From contig CANQOR010000011.1 in assembly GCA_947625535.1 (NCBI GenBank), positions 1-43,611 of the forward strand: DNA of 43,611 nt, written 5' to 3'. Made by a program: the position numbers and the translations under genes. Numbering within the stretch: position 1 is the stretch's first letter; each line of letters begins with the position of its first letter. Below are positions 1,564 to 21,220 of this stretch, piece by piece. The notes beneath the pieces are model-generated. The model saw only the letters and a program-made list of their open reading frames with translations. It was not told the origin of the DNA and did no database searches. This DNA is from an uncultured Bacilli bacterium (GTDB taxonomy: Bacteria; Bacillota_I; Bacilli_A; RF39; UBA660).

Positions 1564-3432
1564 ATGAATATAGTACCTGGTTATTTAGTAGAAATGTGTA
1601 ATTCTAAAGTAATAGATATTAATTATGTAAAAGAACACTTTGATGAATTAGCTATTAAAGGTATATGTATAGATGAATATACTTTAATAAGTGATAAAAA
1701 AATTATTTATACTGATTTAGAACATCCTTTAGTAGTAGCAGATGTTATATTAAGTGAAAGAACTTTATGTATAGATTCTACTTATTATAATGAACATAAA
1801 AAAGAAATAGATGAATTAATATTATTTATTTGTCAAAATTATAAAGATGAAGAATTTAAAATATCTAGTAGTGATTTAATAAATATAGAAATGCTTAAAG
1901 TAATAGCTAGTAATCCTAATATTAAAAGAGTTAATTTAGGAGATAGAAATGATATAGTTTATTTAAGTAAAGAAATGTATGATATATTAAATAATGGCAG
2001 AATAGAAAAGATAGTTACTTATGGAGTAAATGATGATTTAAAAGATAATTTTGATCCTATTATAGGGTATAATGAACGTTTTATAGTTGAAAATTATACT
2101 TATGAAAGTTTAACAAAGACAGAGAATTGTTTTATAAATAAATCTTTAAAAGAAGATGAATTATATTATTTAAAATATTTAAATAAGAATAGTAAAATTA
2201 GATTATCTTCTAAAGATTATGAAAATGTTTTTTTAATTATTAATCGTTTAAGAGAATGTGGTTTTGAAGGACCTATAACAATTGAAATAGGACAAAAGAA
2301 TGATTTTAATGAATATTTATTTAGTCATTTAGATTTATTAAAAGATACGAGAAATATTAAAGTTTATTCTTTTTTAGTAACCGGTTTAAATAATGATTTA
2401 TTAACTTATATTAAGTATGAAAGAAGATTAATAGATATGGTATTACCAGCTATGAATTTAAGTCCTTTTGAAAAATATTTATATGCTTATAATATAGTTA
2501 AACAATTTAAGAAATATAAAGAAAGTGAAGATAAAACTAGTGCTAGGAATTTATATCAATTATTAGATAATGAATATATGGTATGTGTTGGTTATTCTAA
2601 TTTATTAGGTGATTTATTAGATAAGTTAGGTATAGAGAATTGTGAATATTCACAAGCTGTAGATGTAGGTCTTGATTATGTCCCAAAAGATGCTGTAGTA
2701 TTACCTGATAAAGTAGTTAATCCTCGTGATGGAAAAGAATATGAAGTAGAAACAAGAAGAGGAGATCATGCACGAAGAGAGATTCATTTAGTAGATCCAA
2801 AGTATGGAATAGATGGTTATTATTTAGCTGATCCTACTTGGGACAATGACATGCAAAATGATACTTATAATTATGCATTAATGACACAAGATGAATATAT
2901 TGGAACAGATCGTTATAACTATTTTAAAAGATGGGGAATTGATGAATTATTCTTTGTTCATAGTTTAGAAGAATTTTATTTAAAAATAAATATATTATTA
3001 GATAAGAATAAAAATAAAAAAGAAAAAGATATAATAGAGATGTTACTAAGTAAATTTAGTGATTTAGATAAAGAGTTTTATGAACAAATTATTGCAAAGT
3101 ATCCAAAGATTAATTCATTTAGATTTGATTATACAAAAGAAATTATTCAAGATGTATTCTTAATGATAGGAGAACATATTTTAGAAAAAACTAATAATTT
3201 AGTAGATGGTAATAAATTTAAGGAAGGTATTACGGTTTATTATCAAAAGATAAAAGGATTATCTTCAGAAGAATTAGAACGTAAAGTTGCTGAAGTAATG
3301 GAAGTTAATAAAAAAAGACATGCTATTTGTTTCCCAAAAAGATATAAAGTAGATAGAGATGAAAATACTTTAGCAGTATTTAATGCAACCAATAAGTTTG
3401 ATTTAGATGAAGAAGCAAAACTAGATATGTAA
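1564..3432 (+). CDS. Cytoplasmic protein with transglutaminase-like cysteine domain
   Basis: 622 aa, no signal peptide and no clear membrane span, so probably cytoplasmic. Residues ~325-430 resemble a transglutaminase-like papain fold: MVCVGYSNLLGDLLDKLGI places Cys341 at the head of a helix, REIHLVDP supplies His408, and ADPTWD supplies Asp423. That is the Cys-His-Asp order and spacing of the family. Whether it cross-links, cleaves or is inactive cannot be told. The N-terminal ~300 residues (mixed alpha/beta, leucine-patterned) and the C-terminal ~150 residues (helical, Lys/Glu-rich) are not recognised. Start ATG 1564 follows AGGTGA at short spacing. It lies between two terminators (after der and at 3431), so it may be a single-gene unit, but no convincing promoter is visible in the 40 nt before it. 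Confidence 0.6.
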   Translation: MNIVPGYLVEMCNSKVIDINYVKEHFDELAIKGICIDEYTLISDKKIIYTDLEHPLVVADVILSERTLCIDSTYYNEHKKEIDELILFICQNYKDEEFKISSSDLINIEMLKVIASNPNIKRVNLGDRNDIVYLSKEMYDILNNGRIEKIVTYGVNDDLKDNFDPIIGYNERFIVENYTYESLTKTENCFINKSLKEDELYYLKYLNKNSKIRLSSKDYENVFLIINRLRECGFEGPITIEIGQKNDFNEYLFSHLDLLKDTRNIKVYSFLVTGLNNDLLTYIKYERRLIDMVLPAMNLSPFEKYLYAYNIVKQFKKYKESEDKTSARNLYQLLDNEYMVCVGYSNLLGDLLDKLGIENCEYSQAVDVGLDYVPKDAVVLPDKVVNPRDGKEYEVETRRGDHARREIHLVDPKYGIDGYYLADPTWDNDMQNDTYNYALMTQDEYIGTDRYNYFKRWGIDELFFVHSLEEFYLKINILLDKNKNKKEKDIIEMLLSKFSDLDKEFYEQIIAKYPKINSFRFDYTKEIIQDVFLMIGEHILEKTNNLVDGNKFKEGITVYYQKIKGLSSEELERKVAEVMEVNKKRHAICFPKRYKVDRDENTLAVFNATNKFDLDEEAKLDM

Positions 3433-3454
3433 GGACTTTATAAGTCCTTTTTTT
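3431..3454 (+). terminator. Terminator after the transglutaminase-like gene
   Basis: AAGGACTT (3431-3438), 3-nt loop, AAGTCCTT (3442-3449), then T-run. It overlaps the preceding stop codon and directly abuts the next promoter. Confidence 0.85.
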
Positions 3455-3455: not shown

Positions 3456-3484
3456 TTGACAAAGAAAGTTAAAACCTTTATAGT
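3456..3484 (+). promoter_or_regulatory. Sigma-A promoter of the AAA+ ATPase operon
   Basis: TTGACA (3456-3461), 17-nt spacer, TATAGT (3479-3484). Predicted transcription start is about 3491. That excludes the longer open frame starting at TTG 3453 and supports ATG 3507 as the first start codon of the operon. Confidence 0.85.
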
Positions 3485-3506
3485 AAACCATGCTATGGGT
3501 GATATT

Positions 3507-4829
3507 ATGCAATTGTATGGAATGGATAAAGAATTAATTGAGATATATAATCTTCATAATATTGAATCTATTAAGTTATGGGATTTAGTTCAAAATGGAA
3601 CTGGTAAGATGGTTGTTATACCTACTTTATTAGTAACTTATGATGGTGGCAAATACTTAAATATTGGAGCTAAAGATAAGAATTTTAGAGTCTTTGTGCA
3701 AAAAGTTGTTGAAGTTTATCATAATGAAAAAGATAATTTATTAGAAGATGGTTTAACAGATCCTTTTAGATTAAGACCAACTATTAATATTGATGAAAAA
3801 ACAAAGTCTATTTTAGAAAGTGGACGTTTAGAAGACTTAGAAGATATTTATAGTTTTTATGATAATAAAGATAGTTATGATAGTAGTTTATTATTTCAAA
3901 TTGATGAAATTAAAATGTTATTACCTATTATTAAGTATCATATTAAAAGTTTTTATAAATTTACTGATCGAGTTGTAACTTTTGATGAGGGAATTAATGG
4001 ATATAGAGATAATTATACTATAGGTGGTAAAATAGATGGAATATCAGTAAATATTAATTTACTATTTAATAAAATAGATACAAATGAATATGAAGTATAT
4101 GTTGGGGGACTTAATAAGAAAAATATACCTTTAAAAATACATATTAAGTTTAGTAAAGATGCAATTATGGTCGATGTTATTATTCCTTTATATGATGTTG
4201 TTAGTTCTCATAATTATCATATAACTAAAGGGGCACCTAAAGTAACACATGAAATAAGAAAAAAAAATCTACCAGTAGTTTTTGAAGATAGAGATTTAGA
4301 ATCAGGAGAAAATGAATGGCCGAATATTACTTCATTAGATTATGATAGTTCTTTAAGTTGGTATAAACTACCATGGAATGCTTTATATGGAGTAGATAAT
4401 AAAATTACAGAAGTTAGTGAAACAGAAAAAATAGTAGCAATTCATAATATGTATGTTGATGTTAATAGTGATAGTTTTATTAGAAGAGAGTATTATGCTA
4501 AAACATATATTAGAAATAAAACGGTAGCAGTAGATGCTAAGGAAATGGTTTTAGATGAAGTAAAAAAAGTAATAAGTGGTATTTGTTTATCAAAATCTAA
4601 TGGTTTATATGTAATAGAAACTTCTTTTGCTGATAAAGTACAAGGTGGTTCTGGTTACTATGATGATAAATTAAAAAATAGATATTTTTATCATATATGT
4701 TTAAGTAATAATGGTTTAAAAGGTATAAGAAAGGATAACTTAAAACCAGTAAGTAAGAATGATAATGTATTACAAGCTAGTGATATGTTAAATAAAGCAC
4801 AAATGTTAAAGTTAGTTAAAGGTGAGTAA
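3507..4829 (+). CDS. Unknown protein, first gene of the AAA+ ATPase operon
   Basis: 440 aa counting from ATG 3507. I chose this start because the frame further upstream runs through a terminator and the promoter itself, and because GGGTGAT sits just before 3507. The protein is not recognised. It has no signal peptide or membrane span. The middle (residues ~150-290) is rich in alternating beta-type stretches with conserved-looking PW and YDSSLSWYKLPW segments. The C-terminus is helical and lysine-rich. Its stop is 1 nt from the start of the ATPase gene, so the two are translationally coupled and the proteins probably act together. It may be a substrate-recognition or structural partner of the ATPase, but that is inferred from position only. 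Confidence 0.75.
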   Translation: MQLYGMDKELIEIYNLHNIESIKLWDLVQNGTGKMVVIPTLLVTYDGGKYLNIGAKDKNFRVFVQKVVEVYHNEKDNLLEDGLTDPFRLRPTINIDEKTKSILESGRLEDLEDIYSFYDNKDSYDSSLLFQIDEIKMLLPIIKYHIKSFYKFTDRVVTFDEGINGYRDNYTIGGKIDGISVNINLLFNKIDTNEYEVYVGGLNKKNIPLKIHIKFSKDAIMVDVIIPLYDVVSSHNYHITKGAPKVTHEIRKKNLPVVFEDRDLESGENEWPNITSLDYDSSLSWYKLPWNALYGVDNKITEVSETEKIVAIHNMYVDVNSDSFIRREYYAKTYIRNKTVAVDAKEMVLDEVKKVISGICLSKSNGLYVIETSFADKVQGGSGYYDDKLKNRYFYHICLSNNGLKGIRKDNLKPVSKNDNVLQASDMLNKAQMLKLVKGE

Positions 4830-4830
4830 G

Positions 4831-7128
4831 ATGGGTTTATTTAATGAAGAAACACAAGAAGAAAAAGATTTTAAAAGATTAATAAAAGTAATTAAAAATG
4901 CTAATTTAAATTATGAAATTATTAATTATTTAGTTAATTATGTTAGTGAAATAAGAGATAAAAAAAGAAATAATGATTTTTTTGAATTTGATTTTTTAGA
5001 AGGAATTATTTTAGAAATAGTTAATTCTTCTTTTGATAGTTATGATGAATTTTTAAATTTATATAAAAAGATATTAGAGACAGTTAATTTCTTATTACCA
5101 GAAGGAATGTTAACACCAGATTATGATGCTATTAAAAGAATGTTTATTTATAATTTTAGTGATAGTAGTAGTTTTATAGCTAAAGATGTTTTTGAACAAA
5201 AATTTTATAGTTTATTTGATTCGAGATTAGATTATCTTTATTTGATGAATTTAATAGCTAAAGATGAAGATTTAGTTAATAATTATCGTGTTATTTTAAA
5301 TTATGCTTTAGAAGTAGCACCTTATACAATTAATCAAAGCGTTTTAAAAAATGAAATATTATCTTTTATTAATGGTTTAAAAAATGAATTAGGGGATGTT
5401 ACATCTTTTAGTGAAAGAAGACTTATAGAAGCTAAGAAAAGAATGGGTGTTTATCCAATTGATGAAAAAACTTTAGCTATGATATCTGCTGAAGCAGTTA
5501 AAGCCCAGGGACTTATTACTAAATTAGAAGGAATGCAAAAAAAAGTTGATACTTATCAAGATAGAGTAACATCTTTAACTAAGGCTGGGACTAAGGAAAT
5601 TAATGATGCTTTAAAATTAGGTAAAAAAGATATTAGTGATTATGCTCAAAGTGCTATATCAGATATGAAACAAAGTATTGAAGAAGCTCGTAAAGAAATA
5701 ATAGCTAAATTAGATGAATATTTATTATCTTTAGAAAAAGCTTTAAAAGAAAGTAGTGATCAAGTATTTAAGCAATTACTTTTAGATGCCCAAGAAAAGA
5801 TAAATAGTATAAAAGTAATGGCTCAAGGATTATCTAGTACAACAACATCAGAATTACTACGTATTCAAAAAGCAACACAAGATAGTGTTGATAAATTAAA
5901 ATCTTATGTTGAAACAGAACCTCATTTACAAGAATATTTAAAGAGTGCAGCAGATAATGAACAAATAATGAGTGCTTTAAAGAAATTTAGTGAATTACAA
6001 ACAGGAGCTGCGACTCAAGCAGTTGTGGCTGCACCAACAGGAGGAATTATTATTCCAGGCAATGAACGTTTAGTAGTACCTGCTAATCCGCAAGTAATTA
6101 TTCCAAAAGAACAATCTTTAAGTATAGTAATACCTGCTTTTAATGAAAGTATTCCTTTTGATGTAAGAATGCAAAAAATTTTAGATGAGAAGAAACGTCG
6201 TGAAGAAGAAGGTGAATTCTTTCATGAGATGGTTGAAGAAGTTATTCGTTGTATTTTAGAAGGTGATTGGGTTTATCTATGGGGACCTTCAGGATGTGGC
6301 AAATCATTTGTTATTAAACAAGTGGCTGATTTAATAGGAATTGATTTAGTAGAAAATGGTAAGATAACAGATAAATACAGTGTTATGGCTTATAATGATC
6401 CACATGGTAATTTTAGAGCAACACAAGCTTTTGTTGCTTTAGTGTATGGTAAAATGTTATCTTTAGATGAATTTGATAATGGTAATACAGACACACAAGT
6501 TGTTTTAAATGAACTTTATTCTGGTCTTTTAGATGTATTAGCTAATCCAAGTAAACCTAGATATGTAACATTTGCTGAAGATATGACTGTACCTATAAAT
6601 CCTAATTTTAGAATGATAAGTGCAGGTAATACTAAAGGAGGAGGAGAAAATCAAATTTTCTCATCACGTGGTAAAATAGATGAAGCTGTTCAAGAACGTA
6701 TGACACCTAAAGAATTTAAATATGATAACTTAGTTGAACAAAAAATATTTGGTCAATATAAAGATTGGTATGAAATATTTGTTAAATTTAGAGAAGCTTG
6801 TGATATGTATGCAAAACAACATGGTTATGATACAGCACCTGGTATAGGTACAACTAGAGATGCTGCAGCTATTGTTAAATATATAAGACATAATAGTAAA
6901 TCAATAGATCAAATAATGCGTGAAAAATTTACGCAAACAAAAGAAAGAGATTATTTAAGTTTCTTAAGAAAACAATTTGGTCAATTTTATAGTTTAGATC
7001 CAGATGATTTAGATAGTTTTGATATTCCTAAAAAGTTAGATGAAGCTGATACTATGGTTTTAGCCAAATCATTTATAAAGGCTTGTAATAATAGTTTAAA
7101 TGGAACCGAGAAGAGGAAAAGAAGATAA
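4831..7128 (+). CDS. MoxR/CobS-like AAA+ ATPase with long N-terminal coiled coil
   Basis: 765 aa from ATG 4831, preceded by AAAGGTGAG. A GTG at 4822 is in frame but lacks a site. The C-terminal third is a dynein-related (AAA_5/MoxR-type) ATPase domain: Walker A GPSGCGKS at 485-492, Walker B LSLDEFDN at 543-550, then a sensor region around FRMISAGNT and an Arg-rich FSSRGKIDEAVQERM segment. Residues ~200-380 are a helical/coiled-coil region (many Lys/Glu/Gln/Ala heptads) and ~395-440 a short Ala/Val/Pro linker. Such ATPases usually remodel a partner protein and are often encoded beside it, and the flanking unknown genes fit that. No VWA domain with a clear MIDAS motif is visible next door. The last codons overlap an open frame that leads into the next gene (see findings). 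Confidence 0.85.
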   Translation: MGLFNEETQEEKDFKRLIKVIKNANLNYEIINYLVNYVSEIRDKKRNNDFFEFDFLEGIILEIVNSSFDSYDEFLNLYKKILETVNFLLPEGMLTPDYDAIKRMFIYNFSDSSSFIAKDVFEQKFYSLFDSRLDYLYLMNLIAKDEDLVNNYRVILNYALEVAPYTINQSVLKNEILSFINGLKNELGDVTSFSERRLIEAKKRMGVYPIDEKTLAMISAEAVKAQGLITKLEGMQKKVDTYQDRVTSLTKAGTKEINDALKLGKKDISDYAQSAISDMKQSIEEARKEIIAKLDEYLLSLEKALKESSDQVFKQLLLDAQEKINSIKVMAQGLSSTTTSELLRIQKATQDSVDKLKSYVETEPHLQEYLKSAADNEQIMSALKKFSELQTGAATQAVVAAPTGGIIIPGNERLVVPANPQVIIPKEQSLSIVIPAFNESIPFDVRMQKILDEKKRREEEGEFFHEMVEEVIRCILEGDWVYLWGPSGCGKSFVIKQVADLIGIDLVENGKITDKYSVMAYNDPHGNFRATQAFVALVYGKMLSLDEFDNGNTDTQVVLNELYSGLLDVLANPSKPRYVTFAEDMTVPINPNFRMISAGNTKGGGENQIFSSRGKIDEAVQERMTPKEFKYDNLVEQKIFGQYKDWYEIFVKFREACDMYAKQHGYDTAPGIGTTRDAAAIVKYIRHNSKSIDQIMREKFTQTKERDYLSFLRKQFGQFYSLDPDDLDSFDIPKKLDEADTMVLAKSFIKACNNSLNGTEKRKRR

Positions 7129-7250
7129 AGGATTATCTAATTAAATTAAAAGAATTAATAGATAAAATAAAAAAGTTATTTATAAATGATAATAGTTTTA
7201 GTATAGAAGAAGAAATAAAAGAGGAAGAGATAGAGGAAGAGGAGTTACCT

Positions 7251-8207
7251 ATGGAGTATCCACAAAATTATAAAAAATATAGTGACTTTATTTTTCCACC
7301 AGAAAAGGTCTTAGTTGGAGATGAAGATTATACATTATATAAAGCTCGTTTTAATAGTTTATATGATCTTTATGAATATTTAAAAAGTAATCCTCAAACT
7401 AATAGAAGAGTATTTACTACTTTACATAGTGCTGTAAAAGATAGTAGTTTTGCTGGTAAACCATATAAAGCAGCTGTTGAAGATTTAATAAATGATGTTG
7501 ATCCGGGGTATGAAGAATTTTTAACCTTACAAAGAGATTTAAATAATGTTGGTTTAAAAGAAATACATAAATATAAACTGGTTAGGACAGTAGCAGGAGG
7601 ACATTTAAATATACCTGCTTATAGTGCAGGAAACCCACTATGTTATGAAACAGAAGAAAAGATAAAGAAACCAAAATTTGTTAGAATACATGTTACTTTA
7701 TCTTATTATTGGGGAACATCTAAAAGACAAGTTTTAAATAGAGCAATTATTATAACTAATATTTTAAAAGCTTTAGAAAATGCTGGTTATAATGTTGATT
7801 TAAATACTTTTGAATTAAGTATGGAAGCTGATGAATTAATTTATATAGTAGTTCAAATTAAAAAATATGGTGAAAGAATGAATATGGCAGCTTTATATAA
7901 AACTCTTTGTCGTGTTGAATTTTTAAGAAGAATTTTATTTAGAATTCTTGAAACATTAGATGTTACTCGTGATTGGGAAGATGGATATGGAGTGACTTGT
8001 AGTGAAAGATTTACGAAAAGAGCTTTAAACTTTGGATCTAATGATATCTTCTTTGATCAACCTAGAGAAATGGGAATTACTGGGGAAGATTTAGCTGAAG
8101 ATTTTGAAGCAGCGGTTAAGCATTTAAACTTAGATGATAAAATAGATGTGGAAAAAGCTAAAGAAGAATTTAAGAAGGATGTTCAGTCTTTAAAATTAAA
8201 AAAATAA
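7251..8207 (+). CDS. Unknown protein, partner candidate of the AAA+ ATPase
   Basis: 318 aa starting at ATG 7251, behind AGAGGAG with 6-nt spacing. Not firmly recognised. Residues ~145-200 (VRIHVTLSYYWGTSKRQVLN followed by a helix and a beta strand) have the strand-helix-strand pattern, and TSKRQ after the first strand could sit where a VWA-like fold keeps its metal loop, but the DxSxS signature is absent. I have an impression of similarity to phage-encoded companions of CobS-like ATPases, which I cannot verify. The C-terminal 50 residues are acidic/lysine-rich and helical. The frame stays open for about 50 codons upstream of 7251. A strong promoter for thrS begins directly at its stop codon. 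Confidence 0.7.
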   Translation: MEYPQNYKKYSDFIFPPEKVLVGDEDYTLYKARFNSLYDLYEYLKSNPQTNRRVFTTLHSAVKDSSFAGKPYKAAVEDLINDVDPGYEEFLTLQRDLNNVGLKEIHKYKLVRTVAGGHLNIPAYSAGNPLCYETEEKIKKPKFVRIHVTLSYYWGTSKRQVLNRAIIITNILKALENAGYNVDLNTFELSMEADELIYIVVQIKKYGERMNMAALYKTLCRVEFLRRILFRILETLDVTRDWEDGYGVTCSERFTKRALNFGSNDIFFDQPREMGITGEDLAEDFEAAVKHLNLDDKIDVEKAKEEFKKDVQSLKLKK

Positions 8208-8237: not shown

Positions 8238-8243
8238 TTAGTT

Positions 8244-8437
8244 AATTCAATGAGGAAGAACATGATTATTAATGATATTACTTAAAGAGAGTTCATGGTT
8301 GGTGGAAATGAATAGAATACTTAATAATTACTATCTTCTGAGAGGTTTAATAAAACCCGGTTAAGGCCGTTATCTAAATTAAGTTAAATAAAGGATGGTA
8401 CCGCATTATTTGCTCCTTGCAAATAATACGGTTTTTT
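8244..8437 (+). promoter_or_regulatory. T-box riboswitch controlling thrS
   Basis: The leader has the T-box parts in order. The Stem I distal region is AGAGAG...TGGTTGGTGGAAATGAA near 8286-8314. A GAAGA/TCTTC pairing closes Stem I. The conserved T-box sequence AAGGATGGTACCGC is at 8391-8404, overlapping a terminator. The specifier codon is most likely ACT (Thr) at 8330-8332, directly above the closing helix and followed by A; a second ACT at 8319-8321 is a weaker candidate. Uncharged tRNA-Thr would bind the T-box bulge and favour the antiterminator, letting RNA polymerase reach thrS. Exact pairings were drawn by eye. Confidence 0.93.
8400..8437 (+). terminator. T-box-controlled terminator before thrS
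   Basis: ACCGCATTATTTGC (8400-8413), loop TCCTT, GCAAATAATACGGT (8419-8432), then a run of T. The 5' arm shares ACCGC with the T-box sequence, so terminator and antiterminator exclude each other. Confidence 0.92.
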
Positions 8438-10285: not shown

Positions 10286-10313
10286 TACAAGAGAATATGG
10301 GAGTGTGGCAAGT

Positions 10314-13300
10314 ATGAAAATAATGTTAATGGATGCTGCAAAATTAGTTAATTTAGTACTTCCTAATGATGTCTTTGGTAACTATTGGGTTGTTAATGCT
10401 AATAGAGATAATCTAGTTAGTGTACAAGCTGTAGATGGTAATTGGGTGTTAAAAAGCAATAGTGATGTTAAAGTATTTAGAAATGGAGCAGCTGTAGATG
10501 AAACATTACTTGAATATGAAAAATTCTATACTTTAAAAAATATATTACTTAATGAAAGCTATGTTATTTATACTTGTCCTGTATATGATTCTAATGCTTT
10601 ACAATTAAATATTACATTAAATGGTACTAATAGTGCTTTAGTATGGTATGTAGGTAATAATGGAGCTCAAAATGCTGAAACTAATTTTCCTAATATTATT
10701 TCATATGAGCAACCTGGTATAGCTAAAAATCAATTAAAATTAGAATTTAATAATGGAGTTTATGCTGTTACTAATATTAATCCGCGTATTCCAATGTATG
10801 TTAATGGTTTACCATGTGTATCTACTAATTTAAGATATGGAGATACAATTTTTGTTCTAGGTCTTAAAATATCAATAATTAAAGATATATTTTATATAAA
10901 TAATCCAAATAAATTAGTTAAATTTGATTCCCAAGTATTTAATATGCGTATTGCTCCAACATTAGATTTTTCAAAGATTCCAACTGAACCAGATCCAGTT
11001 ATTGAAATGTATAAAAAAGAAGATTACTTCTTAAAACCACCTAGATTTGATGAAAGAATTGAAGAAAAAACTTTTGTTATAGATCCACCACCTGCGGCTC
11101 AAAAACAAGAAGATATGCCGGCTATTTTAACAATGGGTTCAATGTTAATGATGGGTATGAGTTCAATGATGACAGGGGTTATGACTTTAACCAATGTTTT
11201 AAATGGAAGTACACCTTTATCTTCAGCATTACCATCTTTATTAACAGCAGCAGCAATGCTTACTTGTATGCTTGTTTTACCAACTGTTACAAAAATGTAT
11301 AATAAACATAAAAAAGTAGTTTATGAAAGAAAAAGACAAGCTACATATAGTGCTTATGTTCAGAAAAAAAGAGAAGAATTCTTAACAGAAATAAAAAGAG
11401 AACAACAAATATTAATAGAGAAATATATTCCTCTTAAAGATGTTGGAGATATTATTCTTTATAAAAAACGTAATTTATGGGAAAAGAATGTTGATGATTA
11501 TGACTTCTTATCTTTACGTTTAGGTATTGGTTCTATACCACCATATTTTAATGTTAATTATCCAGATGAACATTTCTCTATGGAAGATGAAGATAATTTA
11601 ATGGAATATTTAAGAGTCTTAGAAAAAGAAACTAATGCTTTAGAAAATGTTCCAGTTACTTATTCTTTTGTTAATAAATATATAACAGCTGTAATAGGTC
11701 AAAAAAATGTAACTAATCCTTTCTTAAGAGGTTTATTATTACAAATATTTGCTTATCATGGATATGATTCATTAAAGGTTTGTGTTTTTACTAATAAAGA
11801 AAATGAAAAGTTCTGGGAAGATATTAAAGATTGTCCATATTTCTGGGATGATAATCGTACAATAAGATTCTTTGGAACAAATAGTGATGAAATAAATCAA
11901 ATTAGTTCTTATTTTGAAGAAATGCTTGCTAATGTTAAGGAAGCTAATGAACAAAGAGATGCTGTTAGTGGAGCTGCTAAAGCAACTATTAAATTATCTA
12001 CTAGATATATAATTATTACAGATGATATTGATTTAGTAAGAAATGTTAGTGTTATTAGATCATTAATAGAATCTGTTGAATATATTGGTATCAGTTTAGT
12101 TATCTTTACAGAGAAATTAAATTCTTTACCTAATGAAGTTGAACACTTTATAAGTGTTGATGAACGTACAGGTGGAGTATTTGAAAGAGTATTATCTGAT
12201 AGTAAAAGAATTAATTTTGTACCAGATTTTATGTATGGTTCATTAGAAAAATATACTTATGTTTTATCTAATATTCCAATTGCGTTAAATGGTGGTAAAT
12301 TCCAATTACCAGCTTCTTATTCATTCTTGGAAATGTATAATGTATCAAATGTTAACCAATTGAATGCTTTATCAAGATGGAAAGAAAGTGATCCGATTAA
12401 TTCACTAGCGGCACCAATTGGAATTAATGAATATGGTGATTTATTTAAATTAGACTTACATGAAAAAGCTCATGGACCACATGGCTTAATAGCTGGTATG
12501 ACTGGTTCTGGTAAATCAGAATTCATTATTACATTTATTTTAAGTACAGCAGTTAATTTCCATCCATATGAAGTTCAATTTGTTTTAATCGACTATAAAG
12601 GTGGTGGACTTGCTGGAGCTTTTGAAAATAGAGAAACAGGATTAAGATTACCACATTTAGCTGGTACTATTACAAACTTAGATGTTAGTGAAATTAATCG
12701 TAGTTTAGCTTCATTACAAAGTGAATTAAAACGTCGTCAAGCAGTATTTAATAAAGCAAGAGATAAAGTTGGTGAATCAACAATTGATATTTATAAATAT
12801 CAAAGATTATATCGTAATGGTCAAGTTGATGAACCAGTAGCACACTTATTTATTATTTCCGATGAGTTTGCTGAGTTAAAAGCTCAACAACCAGATTTTA
12901 TGAACGAACTTATTTCAACTGCTCGTATAGGTCGTTCTTTAGGCGTTCACTTAATCTTAGCAACACAAAAACCTAGTGGTGTAGTTAATGATCAAATTTG
13001 GTCAAATGCGAAGTTTAAAGTATGTTTAAAAGTTCAAGATAGATCAGATAGTCAAGAAATGATTAAAAGACCTGATGCAGCTTCTTTAAAAGAAACTGGA
13101 CGTTTCTTCTTACAAGTAGGTTATGATGAATACTTTGCAATGGGTCAATCAGCTTGGACAGGTGCACCTTATTATGAATCTGATGTTCGTAAGAAGAAAG
13201 TAGATAATTCTATTACTTTTGTTGATAATTTAGGAATGCCGATTAAAGTAGTAGAAGATGGACGTAATAGTGTTTCTGGTGTATTAAAAGGTGAAGAATT

Positions 13301-14981
13301 ACCTAATATTATGAAATATTTAGTAGATGTTTCTAAAAAAGAAAATATTAAAGTTAAACAATTATGGTTAAATGCTTTATCACCAATTATTTATATAGAT
13401 GCTTTAAAAGAAAAATATAGTTATAAAAAAGTATCTTGTGATATTAATCCAGTAATTGGTGAATATGATGCCCCTAATTTACAACAACAAGGCTTACTTA
13501 CTATGCCAATTACTAGAGAAGGTAACTGGATAGTTTATGGTATGTCTGATAGTGGTAAAGAAGAAATGATTAATTCATTTGTTTATTCTTGTATTACAAC
13601 ATATTCACCAGCAGAACTTAATCTATATTTATTAGATTTTGGTGGCGAGACATTAAAAATGTATCGTAAAGCTCCACAAGTTGGTGATGTTATTTTACAA
13701 AATGACGTTGATAAAGTTACTAACTTATGGAAAGTTATTAGTGATACTATAGCTAAACGTAAAAAGTTATTTGCTGATTTTGGTGGAGATTATATATCTT
13801 ATTCTAAAGCAACTGGTAAAGTTGTACCTAATATAATAATTATCATTAATGGTTTTGAGTTATATAATGAAAATTTTGGAGATAGTACTTTTGATTTGTT
13901 AGCAACTATTACAAGAGATTGTCAGAAATATGGTGTTTACTTTATTATGACATCTACTACTTCTAATGGTATTAGAAGTAGATTAGCACAATACTTACCA
14001 AATCACTTAGTATTCCAAATGAATGATAAGTATGATTACTCTTCATTATTAGCTAGAACTAAGATTGAACCAGCTGCTGTATCTGGACGTGGTTTAGTTA
14101 AATTAGATGCTGTATTTGAATTCCAAGCAGCTGTACCAACAGAAAAGGAAAATTTAAATACATTTGTCTTAGATAAGATTAATGAGTTATGTAAATTATA
14201 TCCAGAGAGTGCACCTAAGGTTCCTGTATTACCAGAAGTTGTTACAGTTTCTTATTGTTCTGATCAAATGATGGGACTTACTTCAGTACCTGTTGGTGTT
14301 GAAAAAGAATCATTACAAGTTAGAACTCTTGATGTTACTAAGAATACTGTTCATTTAATTACTGGTATGGAATTAAATGAAATTAAAACATTTGGTGAAA
14401 TGTTTATTAGAGAATTAGCTAAGTTAGTTGGCAAGAATTGTTTTGTATTTGACTTGGAAAAGTTATATAAAAATATTTCTGATATTACAACTTATTATGA
14501 TACTAATATTGTTGAAGAATTTAAAAAAGTTGGTAAAACAATATTTGATATGTATACGACATATAAAGATAATGGATTCGATGTCAATGCTTTAAAAGAT
14601 AAAGGTGATATCGTTTGTGTTATTGTTGGAATTGAGAAATTTAAGAACATGATGGGTTCAGAATTTGATGGCGCATACAGCGGATTACTTTCAATGATGA
14701 AAGGAATGCCAAAAGCATATTTTGTTTTAATTGATACTTGTGATAACTTCAAGAAACGTGAATTTGAACCTTGGTATAAAGATACTATTTCTGGTACTAA
14801 AGGTATTTGGGTTGGTAACGGAATGGGTACACAATACACTATTAAGTCAACATTAACTTCACGTGTTTTATCAGCTAAATTAGAGAAAAACTTTGGTTAT
14901 TACGTAGATGGAAATACGACAGTTTTAATTAAAGTAATCTCTGAAGTTGGTGAAGAGGAAGAAGTATATGAAACATTATGA
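10314..14981 (+). CDS. essC: T7SS membrane ATPase EssC (FtsK/SpoIIIE family)
   Basis: Motor and channel component of the Firmicutes type VII secretion system. 1555 aa from ATG 10314, ~10 nt after GGGAG; a GTG at 10305 is in frame but too close to that site. Order of parts: two FHA-like beta domains (residues ~1-95 and ~100-205), two adjacent membrane spans at ~266-290 and ~305-328, a linker domain, then three FtsK-type ATPase domains. The first is intact: Walker A GMTGSGKS at 728-735, Walker B FIISDEF with Asp850/Glu851. The second has GMSDSGKEE at 1076-1084, with the Walker A Ser/Thr replaced by Glu. The third (around ITGMELNEIKTF) has no P-loop lysine. This one-active, two-degenerate arrangement and overall length match Staphylococcus/Bacillus EssC/YukB. 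It has its own promoter and terminator, separate from the substrate cassettes downstream. Confidence 0.95.
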   Translation: MKIMLMDAAKLVNLVLPNDVFGNYWVVNANRDNLVSVQAVDGNWVLKSNSDVKVFRNGAAVDETLLEYEKFYTLKNILLNESYVIYTCPVYDSNALQLNITLNGTNSALVWYVGNNGAQNAETNFPNIISYEQPGIAKNQLKLEFNNGVYAVTNINPRIPMYVNGLPCVSTNLRYGDTIFVLGLKISIIKDIFYINNPNKLVKFDSQVFNMRIAPTLDFSKIPTEPDPVIEMYKKEDYFLKPPRFDERIEEKTFVIDPPPAAQKQEDMPAILTMGSMLMMGMSSMMTGVMTLTNVLNGSTPLSSALPSLLTAAAMLTCMLVLPTVTKMYNKHKKVVYERKRQATYSAYVQKKREEFLTEIKREQQILIEKYIPLKDVGDIILYKKRNLWEKNVDDYDFLSLRLGIGSIPPYFNVNYPDEHFSMEDEDNLMEYLRVLEKETNALENVPVTYSFVNKYITAVIGQKNVTNPFLRGLLLQIFAYHGYDSLKVCVFTNKENEKFWEDIKDCPYFWDDNRTIRFFGTNSDEINQISSYFEEMLANVKEANEQRDAVSGAAKATIKLSTRYIIITDDIDLVRNVSVIRSLIESVEYIGISLVIFTEKLNSLPNEVEHFISVDERTGGVFERVLSDSKRINFVPDFMYGSLEKYTYVLSNIPIALNGGKFQLPASYSFLEMYNVSNVNQLNALSRWKESDPINSLAAPIGINEYGDLFKLDLHEKAHGPHGLIAGMTGSGKSEFIITFILSTAVNFHPYEVQFVLIDYKGGGLAGAFENRETGLRLPHLAGTITNLDVSEINRSLASLQSELKRRQAVFNKARDKVGESTIDIYKYQRLYRNGQVDEPVAHLFIISDEFAELKAQQPDFMNELISTARIGRSLGVHLILATQKPSGVVNDQIWSNAKFKVCLKVQDRSDSQEMIKRPDAASLKETGRFFLQVGYDEYFAMGQSAWTGAPYYESDVRKKKVDNSITFVDNLGMPIKVVEDGRNSVSGVLKGEELPNIMKYLVDVSKKENIKVKQLWLNALSPIIYIDALKEKYSYKKVSCDINPVIGEYDAPNLQQQGLLTMPITREGNWIVYGMSDSGKEEMINSFVYSCITTYSPAELNLYLLDFGGETLKMYRKAPQVGDVILQNDVDKVTNLWKVISDTIAKRKKLFADFGGDYISYSKATGKVVPNIIIIINGFELYNENFGDSTFDLLATITRDCQKYGVYFIMTSTTSNGIRSRLAQYLPNHLVFQMNDKYDYSSLLARTKIEPAAVSGRGLVKLDAVFEFQAAVPTEKENLNTFVLDKINELCKLYPESAPKVPVLPEVVTVSYCSDQMMGLTSVPVGVEKESLQVRTLDVTKNTVHLITGMELNEIKTFGEMFIRELAKLVGKNCFVFDLEKLYKNISDITTYYDTNIVEEFKKVGKTIFDMYTTYKDNGFDVNALKDKGDIVCVIVGIEKFKNMMGSEFDGAYSGLLSMMKGMPKAYFVLIDTCDNFKKREFEPWYKDTISGTKGIWVGNGMGTQYTIKSTLTSRVLSAKLEKNFGYYVDGNTTVLIKVISEVGEEEEVYETL

Positions 14982-14983
14982 TA

Positions 14984-15012
14984 AAAAAGTTAATTAACGT
15001 TAACTTTTTTTT
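14984..15012 (+). terminator. Terminator after essC
   Basis: AAAAAGTTAA (14984-14993), loop TTAACG, TTAACTTTTT (15000-15009), continuing T-run. It begins 3 nt after the essC stop. Confidence 0.85.
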
Positions 15013-15019
15013 CATTTCG

Positions 15020-15048
15020 TTGACTTTACTTTTTTTTTAGAGTATTAT
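15020..15048 (+). promoter_or_regulatory. Sigma-A promoter of T7SS cassette A
   Basis: TTGACT (15020-15025), 17-nt spacer, TATTAT (15043-15048). Predicted start near 15055. It lies directly behind the essC terminator, so cassette A is independently transcribed. Confidence 0.85.
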
Positions 15049-15054
15049 GAGTAT

Positions 15055-15146
15055 ATAAGAGTGTAGTCGATAGTTAGGGGAATTGGTCGGAAATGGTAAG
15101 GCTATCATATATTCTTAAATCTACTTTTAAATAGGGAGGTTTTATT
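15055..15146 (+). promoter_or_regulatory. Leader of cassette A with box shared with cassette B
   Basis: About 90 nt untranslated. AGTTAGGGG at 15072-15080 followed by TTGGT at 15083-15087 recurs at the same distance from the promoter in the cassette B leader. GATAG and CTATC flanking this region could close a stem. The leader ends with the Shine-Dalgarno AGGGAGG for esaB. Confidence 0.45.
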
Positions 15147-15404
15147 ATGAACAATAATAAAGTCTGCGTAGATTTGATTGTACCTAGCATTGAAGAAAGA
15201 TACAATGTTTTTATTCCTGTTAATAAGAAGACTATTGAAATTATATTCTTATTAAATAAAGCGATTAATGATATGACATATGGAAGTTTTGTTATGTCTG
15301 AACAACTATCGTTAATTAATGCTGACACTGGTGCTGTTTATGATGTTAATAATACATTCTTGGAAAATAACATCTTAAATGGTGCAAAATTAATACTATT
15401 ATGA
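15147..15404 (+). CDS. esaB: EsaB/YukD ubiquitin-like T7SS protein
   Basis: 85 aa, the size of YukD/EsaB, a cytoplasmic ubiquitin-fold protein of Firmicutes T7SS loci. The sequence has the beta-grasp pattern. A first strand (KVCVDLIVPSIEERYNVFIP) leads to a helix (KKTIEIIFLLNKAIND), later strands follow around QLSLINADTGAVYDVNNT, and the protein ends LNGAKLILL. The glycine tail of ubiquitin is absent, as is usual for YukD. It is first in cassette A, preceded by AGGGAGG, and its TGA stop lies 13 nt before the next start. Cassette B has no copy, so this one probably serves both. Its exact role (cytosolic assembly or regulation) is not settled for the family. Confidence 0.9.
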   Translation: MNNNKVCVDLIVPSIEERYNVFIPVNKKTIEIIFLLNKAINDMTYGSFVMSEQLSLINADTGAVYDVNNTFLENNILNGAKLILL

Positions 15405-15417
15405 GGAGGTGGAATTA

Positions 15418-15741
15418 ATGGCTACAGGAGAAGGAGTTGCAGGTGCAGATTTAAACGTAAATCCAGCTGGTTTACAATCATTATCTGAAGAAATGTCTAA
15501 TGCTCAATCAGCATTTGAAGCTGCTATTGAATCTATTGATACTGAAGTTATGAATATTGCAGGTAACGCAATGGGTGCTGATAGTGTTGATTATCAAGCA
15601 TTTGTTCAAAAATACCAAAGTGAAATGAAACCATTAGCAGAAGAAATTTCTGAAACATTGGAAAGCCATGCTTCAAAAGCAGCAACAACTGCAAGTAATG
15701 CTGGCGATACTATTGCAGCAAATCTTAAAGTTATTGGTTAG
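15418..15741 (+). CDS. WXG100-like small helical protein without the Trp (cassette A, position 1)
   Basis: 107 aa from ATG 15418, 5-6 nt after GGAGGTGG; the GTG at 15409 lies inside that site. Predicted as a helix-turn-helix hairpin of WXG100 size: first helix around SLSEEMSNAQSAFEAAIESI, a turn at NAMGADSVDYQAF, second helix EMKPLAEEISETLESHASKA. The turn keeps the Gly and the later Phe of the family but has no Trp; there is no Trp in the whole protein. By position it matches the WXG100 protein that opens cassette B. It is likely a secreted T7SS substrate or a dimer partner of the next gene product, which does contain a Trp. Confidence 0.8.
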   Translation: MATGEGVAGADLNVNPAGLQSLSEEMSNAQSAFEAAIESIDTEVMNIAGNAMGADSVDYQAFVQKYQSEMKPLAEEISETLESHASKAATTASNAGDTIAANLKVIG

Positions 15742-15772
15742 TTATTAAAATTTATTATGAAAGAGGTGCAAT

Positions 15773-16090
15773 ATGGCAGAACAAACTACGTCAGTTAATG
15801 TCGAGGCATTAAGACAAGCTCAATCTAAATTAAACGAATCAGCTGATGAATCTTTTACACAATATAGTAATGCAGATTCTAGAATGCAAGAACGTGTAGG
15901 TAACTCAGGTGATGGTTCTTTGGGTGGTAAATTAGGTAATATGGTTAATAGTCAATGGTCTGAAGATACTGTTGAAGCAGTTAATAGATATAAAGAACAA
16001 GCTCAACATTTATTAAATGAAGCTTTATCTACTATTGGCCAAAATGCAGCTAATTTATCTGCTGAGACTGAGTCAGTATATAAAAATTAA
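15773..16090 (+). CDS. Small helical T7SS-associated protein (cassette A, position 2)
   Basis: 105 aa, all-helical, Gln/Asn/Ser/Glu-rich, with ATG 15773 behind GAGGTG. The first helix spans about residues 7-45. A glycine-rich turn (SGDGSLGGKLGN) precedes NSQWSED, and a second helix runs through EQAQHLLNEALSTIGQNAANL. It has a Trp but no W-x-G. Size and placement suit a WXG100-type partner, probably forming a four-helix heterodimer with the product of the preceding gene. Cassette B has a 103-aa protein in the same slot with the same SQW tripeptide but little other obvious identity. A pair of hairpins begins 7 nt after the stop. Confidence 0.75.
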   Translation: MAEQTTSVNVEALRQAQSKLNESADESFTQYSNADSRMQERVGNSGDGSLGGKLGNMVNSQWSEDTVEAVNRYKEQAQHLLNEALSTIGQNAANLSAETESVYKN

Positions 16091-16097
16091 TTATTGT

Positions 16098-16160
16098 ACT
16101 GTGTCTTTGACACAGTTCATTATAAGTGAAAGATAGAAATATCTTTTATTTATAATGAAC
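16098..16160 (+). other. Twin intercistronic hairpins, cassette A
   Basis: Hairpin 1: ACTGTGTC (16098-16105), loop TTT, GACACAGT (16109-16116). Hairpin 2: a 21-bp stem with two G·T pairs, arms 16115-16135 and 16140-16160, closed by a GAAA tetraloop. The two share bases 16115-16116. There is no U-tract, so neither is a normal terminator. They sit between the second and third genes, exactly where cassette B has the same two-hairpin arrangement. A likely role is processing, stability or partial attenuation that makes the upstream small proteins more abundant; this is inference. Confidence 0.85.
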
Positions 16161-16184
16161 TTGAAGTATAAGGAGGAATAAATT

Positions 16185-16568
16185 ATGTCATTACAATCGT
16201 TGGTTACAGCTCAAGCAGATATGGGTGGAGGAAGTGGATATAGTGATGACGTTTATAGCTTTGCTGTAGATGCTTCTCAAATAGAAGATTTGTGTGAATT
16301 TTTAACATCAAAAGCAGATGATTTGCAAACAGCCTTTGATGGTATTTTTAGTGAGATAGTTGCTATGGAAAGTGATGCGTGGTCCGGAACTTCTTACGAA
16401 ACTTTTAGAACTAAATGTTATGAATATAAACCTGCTATGGATGCTTTAGTTGCTATATTTAGGGCATATGTATCTCTTTATCAAAAAGAAGTAACTGATG
16501 CTAAACAAATTTTAGATGAAACGTTAGATAATGCTTTTGCAAATGCTTCTGATGATAGAGAATACTAA
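16185..16568 (+). CDS. WXG100 protein (cassette A, position 3)
   Basis: 127 aa from ATG 16185, preceded by AAGGAGGA. A clear WXG motif, W66-S-G68, sits between two long helices, in the pattern DAWSGTSYETF; the second helix runs through VAIFRAYVSLYQKEVTDAKQ. It is longer than a classic 100-aa EsxA because of a ~25-residue Gly/Ser-rich N-terminal stretch and an acidic tail. It aligns by eye with the N-terminal ~100 residues of the 423-aa protein in the same slot of cassette B: ADDLQ..F..IFSEI..ME.D.W.G..Y..F against ADKFD..V.DLYTEI..MG...WVG.DY.MF. Predicted to be secreted through EssC. Confidence 0.88.
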   Translation: MSLQSLVTAQADMGGGSGYSDDVYSFAVDASQIEDLCEFLTSKADDLQTAFDGIFSEIVAMESDAWSGTSYETFRTKCYEYKPAMDALVAIFRAYVSLYQKEVTDAKQILDETLDNAFANASDDREY

Positions 16569-16585
16569 TAATGAGGTGATAATAT

Positions 16586-18025
16586 ATGGGTGAACAAAAA
16601 GAAACGTTTGTTGTAGAAAGTGTTCAAAAACATTTAGATGTTATAAATGATTTATTTGAAAAAGTTGCAACACTTTTAAAAGAATCTAATGATAGAGTTT
16701 TTGAAGTTATACAAACTGGTCCAACTTCAGCTATGTTTGGTAATTTAGCATCACAACTATTATCAATATGGGATCAAAATGCTTCAACTTTTGGCGATTT
16801 TAAATTAAATTTTGAAGAATGGTCAAAAATGATTAGCATTATTACAGCAAATAACCTTCAATTTGAAGAAGAAACAATAGATTTATATAAAAATACAGGT
16901 AAAAATTTATCTGGTATTCAAGAAAAGCGTGAAGAACTAATGAGTTCGTCAGCTAAAACTACTGGTGATAGTACTAGGGGTGGAACTACTAGTGAATATT
17001 ATGATGAAAATGGTAATCTTGTAGTTATTGAAACTGATGAAGATGGCAATCAATATAAGAAAACTGTTACCGATAAAGATGGAAATATTGTAAATATTTA
17101 TTATGATGGTCAGGGAAATTATTCTGAAACTAAACTTGTAGATGGCAAAAGTGTTACAAAATTTTATGATGAAAATGGTAATGAAATTGAAAGACCTTAT
17201 ACATTTAGCCCTTCTGGTATATCTTATAGCGAAGAAGGAATTAAAAATGTTACTACACGAGAAGCTAATCAATTTATGACTGATCATGGATTAGATACTT
17301 CTAGTGCTGAATATGCTAACTTGTCACCTGAAGCTAAGGCAATTGTTGATGAAACATTACAAAAAGTTGAAGACTTGGGCTTACCAGATGGAAGTGTAGA
17401 ATGGCAAGAAAAATTCAATAGTTTACCTCCAGAAACTCAAGATATAGTTTTAGCTTCTGTTAGAGGAAACGTTTCACAAGATATACCAAAAACAAATAGT
17501 TATACAATCAGTAGTGAAGTTCCTACTGGTGAATATGACGGAAGAACTATTATTGTACCAAAACTAAATGAGAGTGATTTTAGTGGTTCAAATGCTAGTT
17601 CTGTAAGAAAAGATAATGCCCAAATTATTATTGATTCAGCTGGAGCTGTTCAAGAAACTCTAAGGGGAGAAAATACAGCTTTAACTTCACTTAAAGGCAA
17701 TTTAGAAAATAATGCAACTTATAATGCTTTACCTGCCGAATCCAGAGAAGCAATTAATCAATACCTTGATTCACAAATTGCTCAAAGATCTAGTTTGGAT
17801 ACTCAAATTACAGACGATTGTAAACGTCCTTGGAATGCAGATGATGGCGCAATTGGTGATGCTGTAAGTTGGTCTTTAAGTGATTCAGGATATGCAAATA
17901 AAGATTATGGTAATTATAAAGAAGCTGCTGATGCAGCAAATGCATGGAATGCAACGTTGAGTGAGATTGATTCTTTAAATGAAGTTACAGCTATGTTAAA
18001 TAGTTATGGTGTATTTATTAATTAA
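16586..18025 (+). CDS. T7SS substrate candidate with YD-like repeats (cassette A, position 4)
   Basis: 479 aa. Residues 1-115 are helical with two conserved tryptophan segments, NLASQLLSIWDQNASTFGDF and NFEEW. The same pattern (DLANQLMLDWENTASSFPNF...NFNNW) opens the 468-aa protein of cassette B, so this is a shared N-terminal domain, probably the WXG-like secretion or dimerisation part. Residues ~138-212 hold four to five imperfect ~17-residue repeats around YDENGN/DEDGN/DKDGN, resembling YD or MORN-type beta repeats. Residues 215-479 are helical, Asn/Ser/Glu-rich and not recognised. No nuclease, NADase, ADP-ribosyltransferase or deaminase motif is visible, and no immunity-type gene follows. 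Start ATG 16586 follows a GAGGTGAT site. Confidence 0.75.
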   Translation: MGEQKETFVVESVQKHLDVINDLFEKVATLLKESNDRVFEVIQTGPTSAMFGNLASQLLSIWDQNASTFGDFKLNFEEWSKMISIITANNLQFEEETIDLYKNTGKNLSGIQEKREELMSSSAKTTGDSTRGGTTSEYYDENGNLVVIETDEDGNQYKKTVTDKDGNIVNIYYDGQGNYSETKLVDGKSVTKFYDENGNEIERPYTFSPSGISYSEEGIKNVTTREANQFMTDHGLDTSSAEYANLSPEAKAIVDETLQKVEDLGLPDGSVEWQEKFNSLPPETQDIVLASVRGNVSQDIPKTNSYTISSEVPTGEYDGRTIIVPKLNESDFSGSNASSVRKDNAQIIIDSAGAVQETLRGENTALTSLKGNLENNATYNALPAESREAINQYLDSQIAQRSSLDTQITDDCKRPWNADDGAIGDAVSWSLSDSGYANKDYGNYKEAADAANAWNATLSEIDSLNEVTAMLNSYGVFIN

Positions 18026-18051
18026 TTTTTACTTATAAGTGAGGTGAAAAT

Positions 18052-18291
18052 ATGATAGATTATAATACTTTAGACGGAACTATAGATGCTCTTAATGACT
18101 TTAGAGATAAAATTAATGATTTTATTCTTCATAAAATGGATAGATCAATTTTAGAACGTGACGGAGAAAGTGATTGGGAACCAATAAAAGAATCTTTCAG
18201 ACAACTTCTTACGGAGATAGATGAAACAATTCAAGTTTGTAAAACTAATGGAAGCAGTATGAAGGTAATAGCTGATAAATTTAATGATTAA
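18052..18291 (+). CDS. Small helical protein (cassette A, position 5)
   Basis: 79 aa, ATG 18052 behind GAGGTGAAA. Two predicted helices: an N-terminal one around TIDALNDFRDKINDFIL and a C-terminal one, SFRQLLTEIDETIQVCKTNG. No family recognised. Its place between a WXG-like effector and a large substrate, 11 nt before the latter's start, is typical of small T7SS chaperones or targeting factors (Lap-type), but the sequence does not prove that. The cassette B slot holds a 135-aa helical protein without obvious identity. Confidence 0.7.
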   Translation: MIDYNTLDGTIDALNDFRDKINDFILHKMDRSILERDGESDWEPIKESFRQLLTEIDETIQVCKTNGSSMKVIADKFND

Positions 18292-21218: not shown

Positions 21219-21220
21219 TA

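What the first reader, a model, noticed from the sequence alone, without database searches (positions are those of the whole stretch)
3456..8207. Compact three-gene AAA+ ATPase operon of unknown purpose
Own strong promoter, translational coupling of the first two genes, a MoxR/CobS-like ATPase with an unusual long coiled-coil N-terminus, and two unrecognised partners. MoxR-type ATPases nearly always act with a VWA or other partner on a specific target; here neither partner shows a MIDAS. A phage-derived or defence-like function is possible, but nothing in the sequence demonstrates it.
Basis: partly seen in the sequence, partly recalled or inferred. Interest (0 to 1): 0.5.

Follow-up and report, generated by a model that had tools for sequence, protein, structure and literature searches.

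The report
AAA+ motor operon with metal-less partner
Three neighbouring genes in an uncultured bacterium encode what looks like an ATP-driven protein-remodelling machine of the MoxR type, whose adhesion-domain partner appears to have lost its metal-binding grip; it is a new branch of a known kind of machine and its target is unknown.

Summary
The trio is real: its own conserved promoter, coupled genes A and B, then gene C. Gene B (765 aa) is an AAA+ ATPase of the midasin/CobS/CbbQ/NorQ clade with its catalytic residues kept. Gene C (318 aa) is Pfam DUF7192; its predicted fold (pLDDT 82) is a vWA domain, best matched by NorD's vWA domain bound to the ATPase NorQ. An AAA gene directly precedes DUF7192 in 28 of 29 genome loci; three phages opened carry the pair too. 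Gene A (440 aa) has no family or fold match; at all 21 testable places of its family a DUF7192 gene follows 2-3 kb downstream, and 8 of 22 clusters include TelA. So this is probably a MoxR/vWA remodelling machine whose vWA lost metal-dependent target binding, with gene A (and TelA where present) proposed to supply target recognition. The target is unknown; an envelope target is a guess. Nothing shown here makes it a defence system or prophage. New variant of a known kind.

The parts
3456..3484 (+). operon promoter, TTGACA-17-TATAGT
   Evidence: 11 of 12 consensus match; identical boxes and spacing in 6 of 8 loci compared, 22-26 bp before gene A
3507..4829 (+). gene A, 440 aa, orphan family with a predicted beta-rich centre; proposed target-recognition adaptor
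   Evidence: no match at E 0.001 or better in Pfam, NCBIfam, PHROGs or PADLOC; AlphaFold2 pLDDT 69, no clear fold match; 21 of 21 testable places have DUF7192 downstream
4831..7128 (+). gene B, 765 aa, MoxR/NorQ/CobS-clade AAA+ ATPase with long helical N-terminal part
   Evidence: AAA and AAA_5 above Pfam cut-off, phrog_249 E 1e-23, profile hits to midasin, CobS, CbbQ, NorQ structures
5400..6000 (+). long helical stretch of gene B, probable coiled coil (inferred from composition)
   Evidence: weak, sub-threshold Apolipoprotein-like match at residues 232-376; no coiled-coil predictor or structure prediction run
6283..6306 (+). Walker A, GPSGCGKS
   Evidence: G485, G488, G490, K491 invariant in 10 sequences
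6394..6432 (+). segment between Walker A and B, likely helix-2 insert facing the pore (inferred)
   Evidence: position only; not modelled
6454..6480 (+). Walker B, MLSLDEFDN
   Evidence: D546, E547 invariant in 10 sequences
6616..6639 (+). sensor 1 segment (N600)
   Evidence: N600 invariant in 10 sequences; coordinates; role recalled
7251..8207 (+). gene C, 318 aa, DUF7192: vWA-fold partner without an intact MIDAS
   Evidence: PF23822 71.6 bits, cut-off 27; AlphaFold2 pLDDT 82.3; NorD vWA best structural match
7599..7637 (+). conserved segment GHLNIPAYSAGNP before strand beta-1; proposed pore-inserting finger tip
   Evidence: G116 and P129 invariant, G127 nearly, in 33 sequences; lies between strands 108-113 and 132-137; equivalence to the NorD finger is inferred
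7695..7709 (+). decayed MIDAS motif 1 (TLSYY where DxSxS is expected)
   Evidence: position 149: N in 23, D in 0 of 37 sequences; position inferred from the modelled strand
7914..7952 (+). most conserved segment of DUF7192, VEFLRRILFRILE
   Evidence: lowest mean entropy of the family, 0.59 bits over residues 221-230
7125..7250 (+). open frame before gene C's ATG, possible N-terminal extension from a non-standard start
   Evidence: no ATG/GTG/TTG in frame; similar-looking extension in L023 (no ATG) and, with an ATG, in L024

Best explanation
Genes B and C are the motor and adaptor of a MoxR-type AAA+/vWA remodelling machine. Shown or strongly indicated: B is a NorQ/CobS-clade ATPase with its catalytic residues kept; C has a predicted vWA fold closest to NorD; the two genes are near-constant neighbours. 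Inferred by analogy with NorQ/NorD: B forms a hexamer, and C plugs the ring with a conserved hairpin finger in the pore, so that ATP hydrolysis twists C against a bound target. C lacks the first MIDAS aspartate in every relative examined, so it probably cannot grip its target through a metal ion. I propose that gene A, encoded first and linked to the pair wherever that could be tested, is the target-recognition subunit, helped in sister systems by TelA. The target is unknown; a membrane or envelope complex is the likeliest guess because of TelA.
For: B: AAA and AAA_5 above cut-off; profile hits midasin 2.8e-29, CobS 9.5e-11, CbbQ 3.2e-8, NorQ 7e-4; Walker A and B residues, N600, R613, R623 and R654 invariant in 10 sequences. 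C: model from 33 sequences, pLDDT 82.3, pTM 0.78; NorD vWA in complex with NorQ ranks first and second (VIA Z 8.0, rmsd 5.4 A, 207 aligned; Z 7.8, 5.5 A, 196), then the Rea1 MIDAS domain (Z 6.2, 6.0 A, 165), and the further rows are mostly vWA-type domains (fold labels partly recalled); Foldseek E 2.4e-5 and 7.3e-4 against 0.085 for the next. Pairing: AAA directly upstream of DUF7192 in 28 of 29 genome loci, and within about 0.4 kb upstream in the three phages opened. MIDAS loss: D in 0 of 37 at position 149. In NorD, MIDAS changes spare NorQ binding but abolish target activity (passages of PMC9976466), so a MIDAS-less vWA can still dock on its ATPase. Gene A linkage: 21 of 21 testable places. 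TelA in 8 of 22 gene A clusters, one of the 8 under Pfam's cut-off.
Against: Whole-alignment TM-scores to NorD are low (0.26-0.32, rmsd 9.1-10.5 A), and Z near 8 is at the edge of what unrelated folds can give (note). No vWA family of Pfam matches any of 33 members by sequence at E 1, and no solved structure matches the C profile by sequence. MIDAS position 149 was placed from the end of the modelled strand, not from a residue-level structural alignment; the other two MIDAS motifs were not located. One of 29 loci (L048) has no AAA match in the roughly 825 bases before DUF7192. Gene A's adaptor role rests on linkage alone, and 9 of 30 DUF7192 places in the 19 genomes have no gene A beside them. 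The own genome, 88 percent complete, shows no TelA.
Confidence: 0.6

Rival explanations
1. A conflict (anti-phage or similar) system built like the published MoxR-vWA ternary systems: B and C are the NTP-dependent core and gene A the third, sensing or effector, component.
For: Patchy presence (DUF7192 in 7 of 98 genomes of the family, its own included; absent from the one other same-genus genome, 85 percent complete), swapped partners around an AAA-DUF7192 core, phage homologues of the core, and a published theme of MoxR + vWA + a third component (passages of PMC7159879).
Against: PADLOC scan of the trio gave only weak matches, best E 3.7e-4; no effector domain recognised on C or A; several loci read lie among genes that look like housekeeping genes (murC/ssb, rpoB, thrS; gene names mostly by eye), though neighbours were not scanned systematically for defence genes; gene A is under ordinary purifying selection.
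Confidence: 0.2
2. An assembly or metal-insertion chaperone for one specific enzyme complex, as NorQD, CbbQO or CobST are.
For: The closest solved relatives of B and C belong to these pairs.
Against: No enzyme gene was seen to travel with the trio: neighbours differ between the loci read (by eye); the first MIDAS motif, whose site serves target maturation in NorD, is gone.
Confidence: 0.15
3. Phage-derived genes captured by the chromosome, now of no or cryptic use to the host.
For: phrog_249 and phrog_1909 matches; Kayvirus, mycobacteriophage and Rhizobium phage pairs.
Against: Phage copies are 24-29 percent identical over part of C in the 30 rows shown of 262 records; the named window neighbours are not phage genes, though neighbours were not scanned against PHROGs apart from the 622-aa one; the genes are intact, with pN/pS 0.18-0.43 and a conserved promoter.
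Confidence: 0.05

Closest known systems
NorQ/NorD nitric oxide reductase maturation chaperone
   Same: MoxR-clade ATPase gene paired with a vWA-fold gene; C's best structural matches are NorD's vWA domain; a conserved loop precedes strand beta-1 where NorD's finger is expected (inferred)
   Different: first MIDAS motif of C decayed; C is much shorter than the 70-kDa NorD; B has a long helical N-terminus; extra gene A; no nor genes noticed
CobS/CobT and CbbQ/CbbO (same clade)
   Same: profile relatives of B; AAA plus vWA partner
   Different: no cobalamin or RuBisCO genes noticed in the neighbourhoods read (by eye); MIDAS decayed
MoxR-vWA ternary conflict systems (VMAP, iSTAND)
   Same: three-component layout MoxR + vWA + third protein, patchy distribution
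   Different: C carries no effector domain by Pfam; gene A not shown to be VMAP or iSTAND
Phage MoxR-vWA pairs (jumbo phages; phrog_249 + phrog_1909)
   Same: AAA gene with DUF7192 or vWA gene nearby
   Different: the jumbo-phage vWA described in print is fused to a metallopeptidase (passage); no gene A match within 5 kb of the match in the three phages opened
Ter / TelA envelope-stress and anti-phage gene sets
   Same: TelA in 8 of 22 gene A clusters
   Different: no TelA found in the window genome; other Ter genes were not sought

Membership tests
MoxR/NorQ/CobS-clade AAA+ ATPase (gene B) | Walker A, Walker B, sensor 1 and arginine residues | tested here: met
   K491, D546, E547, N600, R613, R623, R654 invariant in 10 sequences, R676 in 90 percent or more; coordinates; roles of sensor 1 and the arginines recalled
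MoxR/NorQ/CobS-clade AAA+ ATPase (gene B) | profile relationship to clade members | tested here: met
   midasin, CobS, CbbQ, NorQ
MoxR/NorQ/CobS-clade AAA+ ATPase (gene B) | helix-2 insert hairpin and hexamer | not tested
Pfam DUF7192 (gene C) | score over curated cut-off | tested here: met
   71.6 bits against 27; all 33 members of alignment A4 match the family
vWA partner of MoxR ATPases (NorD type) | vWA fold | tested here: met
   model pLDDT 82.3; NorD vWA Z 8.0 and 7.8, rmsd 5.4 and 5.5 A, 207 and 196 aligned, Foldseek E 2.4e-5; TM-scores low, and a predicted model only
vWA partner of MoxR ATPases (NorD type) | vWA family match by sequence | tested here: inconclusive
   no Pfam vWA family among matches of 33 members
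vWA partner of MoxR ATPases (NorD type) | MIDAS DxSxS motif | tested here: not met
   D in 0 of 37 at the inferred position
vWA partner of MoxR ATPases (NorD type) | gene next to a MoxR-type ATPase | tested here: met
   28 of 29 genome loci
vWA partner of MoxR ATPases (NorD type) | pore-inserting finger | tested here: inconclusive
   conserved loop between two strands at 114-131; no residue-level overlay
MoxR-vWA ternary conflict systems | third component VMAP-C or iSTAND | not tested
   no such model was searched by name; gene A has no Pfam match over cut-off
MoxR-vWA ternary conflict systems | effector domain on the vWA protein | tested here: not met
   only DUF7192 above cut-off in gene C
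Ter system | TelA present with the operon | tested here: not met
   no TelA found in the own genome, 88 percent complete; present in 8 of 22 gene A clusters elsewhere

The most novel reading that the evidence does not exclude
A previously undescribed lineage of MoxR machines in which the vWA partner has given up metal-dependent target binding and handed target recognition to a new protein family (gene A), often together with TelA: a modular, horizontally spread envelope-protection or defence machine whose core is also used by phages.
Probability: 0.3. Interest if true: 0.7.

Novelty: new variant of a known kind. Interest (0 to 1): 0.5.

Why it matters
It proposes a fold and a partner for DUF7192, a name that appears in no paper of the library searched. 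If confirmed, it shows that the MoxR/vWA motor can work without the MIDAS that is thought to hold the target, which bears on how these machines choose and pull on targets. It also puts TelA in one gene cluster with an AAA+ motor, which makes a role of TelA testable.

Tried and rejected
Gene A by family and fold: no match at E 0.001 or better in Pfam, NCBIfam, PHROGs or PADLOC, none by profile in solved structures, only generic beta-sheet matches by fold (Z up to 7.5, rmsd 4.3 A, 114 aligned; Foldseek best E 0.018; viral library best 1.7e-3). The model is weak (pLDDT 69, pTM 0.59, 8 sequences), so its fold is left open and no known family is excluded. Gene C by profile in solved structures: none. 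Viral contigs with the DUF7192 pattern: 16 candidates, none confirmed. A sequence-profile test against CoxE-type vWA domains was started and dropped. Prophage origin and cofactor chaperone were considered and ranked low. A link to the type VII secretion-like locus downstream was set aside: a tRNA synthetase gene with its own leader lies between, and I saw no such locus beside the L012 and L013 trios in the ORF lists (by eye, no profile search). L021 and L022 do have a large unidentified ORF further downstream. Papers: PMC7824862, PMC7159879, PMC13036017 and PMC9976466 were seen as passages; all others only as search listings.

Full report
What is there. Three genes lie on the + strand: A 3507-4829 (440 aa), B 4831-7128 (765 aa) and C 7251-8207 (318 aa). 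Longer ORFs start at TTG 3453 for A and GTG 4822 for B; I take the ATGs that match the relatives. A terminator-like stem at 3431-3449 ends the gene before, and a near-consensus promoter, TTGACA-17-TATAGT, follows at 3456-3484. Promoter-like sites as a class are not more frequent here than in shuffled sequence (25 found, 34.4 expected), so the match alone would be weak. But the same boxes and spacing stand 22-26 bp before gene A in 6 of 8 loci compared, with one near match (L025) and one miss (L042, where gene A is second after telA), and 13 of 2000 shuffles of the 120 bp reach 11 of 12. A and B are one base apart between stop and start. Against L021-L024, pN/pS is 0.28-0.43 for A and B and 0.18-0.28 for C.

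Gene B. Pfam AAA and AAA_5 pass their cut-offs, and PHROG 249, the phage 'porphyrin biosynthesis' family, matches at 1e-23. A 10-sequence profile finds midasin, CobS, CbbQ and NorQ among solved structures. Walker A and B residues, N600 and arginines 613, 623 and 654 are invariant in those ten; R676 is nearly so. The N-terminal half looks helical and varies between relatives: coiled-coil-like here, with a weak, sub-threshold leucine-rich-repeat match in L016 and L034, and short in L031 (356 aa in all) and in a Kayvirus (359 aa in all).

Gene C. It is DUF7192 (71.6 bits, cut-off 27). A model from 33 relatives has pLDDT 82.3 and pTM 0.78. [quoted passage not shown] The Rea1 MIDAS domain follows (Z 6.2, 6.0 A, 165), then mostly vWA-type domains such as Ku and integrin I domains (fold labels partly recalled). 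Foldseek gives 2.4e-5 and 7.3e-4, against 0.085 for the next. Against this, TM-scores over the whole alignment are only 0.26-0.32, Z near 8 can occur without kinship (note), and no vWA Pfam family matches any of the 33 members by sequence. I take the fold as probable, not proven.

The missing metal site. In a vWA domain the first MIDAS motif, DxSxS, follows strand beta-1, which is residues 143-149 in the model. At position 149, 23 of 37 sequences (33 bacterial, 4 from three phages) have N, none has D, and the window has T. Patterns D-x-S/T-x-S/T occur elsewhere in 14 of the 37, but not at that place. In NorD, changes of two MIDAS residues left NorQ binding intact but abolished activity of the target (passages of PMC9976466). 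NorD's finger and C-terminus make the contact with NorQ (passages of PMC13036017). A vWA without MIDAS can therefore still be a docking partner, but must find its target another way. The loop 114-131, between two strands just before beta-1, holds the invariant G116 and P129 and is my candidate for the finger. That equivalence is by position only.

Neighbourhoods. The single genome-contig scan, made with one peptide pattern, gave 29 loci from uncultured Bacilli, Clostridia, Tenericutes and related MAGs. In 28 of 29 an AAA gene directly precedes the DUF7192 gene; in L048 the roughly 825 bases before it hold none. Gene A precedes the pair in 7 of 29 (L021-L026, L042); at least L027, L032 and L037 are cut by a contig end before gene A could show. 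Across 385 genomes of the order, a gene A profile finds 22 places in 19 genomes; in several genomes only 4 of up to 9 candidates were scored, so this is a lower bound. In 21 of the 22 a DUF7192 gene lies 2-3.1 kb downstream on the same strand, room for the AAA gene. I saw that AAA gene itself in 7 of the 21, those whose contigs I read or scanned. The last place ends 170 bases before its contig does and cannot be judged. TelA lies in the same cluster in 8 of the 22, seven times before gene A and once after the DUF7192 gene; one of the 8 scores under Pfam's cut-off. Nine of 30 DUF7192 places in those genomes have no gene A next to them; one of the nine (G268:C46) may be the other half of the place cut by a contig end. 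Neighbourhoods read in full include AAA-DUF7192 without gene A (L015) and AAA-DUF7192 followed by an unnamed protein (L016, L017, L019). So the constant core is AAA plus DUF7192, and the other partners are swapped around it. In phages, Kayvirus GH15 ORF047-046, a Rhizobium phage and mycobacteriophage Krypton555 carry the pair close together, in the last two with small genes between.

Distribution and place. DUF7192 occurs in 7 of 98 genomes of the family and 6 of 395 of the class, the own genome counted in both. The one other genome of the genus searched, 85 percent complete, lacks it. The trio is not in a fixed place: near der and thrS here, near murC and ssb in L012, elsewhere in L013 (murC, ssb and similar names are read from the sequences by eye). 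L021 and L022 appear to share the window's surroundings (by size and order). This patchiness suggests horizontal spread or frequent loss. I noticed no phage or defence genes beside the loci that I read, but I did not scan the neighbours systematically.

Mechanism. Most likely, B is a hexameric motor, C docks on it with a finger in the pore, and A, with TelA in some relatives, brings the target. The motor and docking steps rest on homology and predicted fold. The adaptor role of A rests on linkage and on the lost MIDAS. The envelope target is a guess from TelA, which a published overview places among sub-membrane components of Ter systems (passage of PMC7824862).

Is it known? DUF7192 appears in no paper of the library. 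TelA, MoxR and AAA together appear in one, the jumbo-phage overview, whose passages treat TelA and MoxR-vWA separately. Searches for CobS/CobT in phages, ternary systems, TelA with vWA, Kayvirus MoxR, NorQ/NorD and Ter sets showed no description of this operon in the titles and abstract starts listed; two of these lists were cut at 12. Subscription journals are mostly not covered. I file it as a new variant of the MoxR/vWA kind, not as a member of the NorD family, because the MIDAS test failed.

Noticed in passing
window 8241-8420: T-box leader before the threonyl-type tRNA synthetase gene: RF00230 74.4 bits, E 1.4e-16, but under the family's gathering score of 93, so a default scan misses it.
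   Followed up: yes
window 7125-7250: Gene C's open frame runs 52 codons upstream of its ATG without ATG, GTG or TTG; L023 shows the same, and L024 has a similar-looking extension with an ATG right after gene B's stop. Gene C may start at a non-standard codon (ATA).
   Followed up: partly
window 3480-3496: Imperfect palindrome over the -10 box and start site (ATAGTA...GCTAT), nearly perfect in L022 (ATAGTAAATTTTACTAT); possible operator.
   Followed up: no
window 10305-27546: Locus resembling a type VII secretion set: 1558-aa FtsK/SpoIIIE protein, WXG100-like proteins at 15409 and 16185 under the family cut-off, then large ORFs, some with weak RHS or collagen matches.
   Followed up: partly
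window 1564-3432: 622-aa protein without a family match at E 0.001 or better; a C...H...D pattern in its middle part recalls transglutaminase-like proteins (by eye, not tested).
   Followed up: no
L021 8024-9652: A serpin gene (Pfam Serpin 6.7e-51) follows the trio; L022 has a protein of similar size there (549 aa), not scanned.
   Followed up: no
L036 6962-8766, L049 5819-7777: Two DUF7192 genes in tandem behind one AAA gene.
   Followed up: no
G110:C6, G080:C12, G236:C12: Open frames of 1374-1643 aa with a partial TelA match, far longer than ordinary TelA.
   Followed up: no
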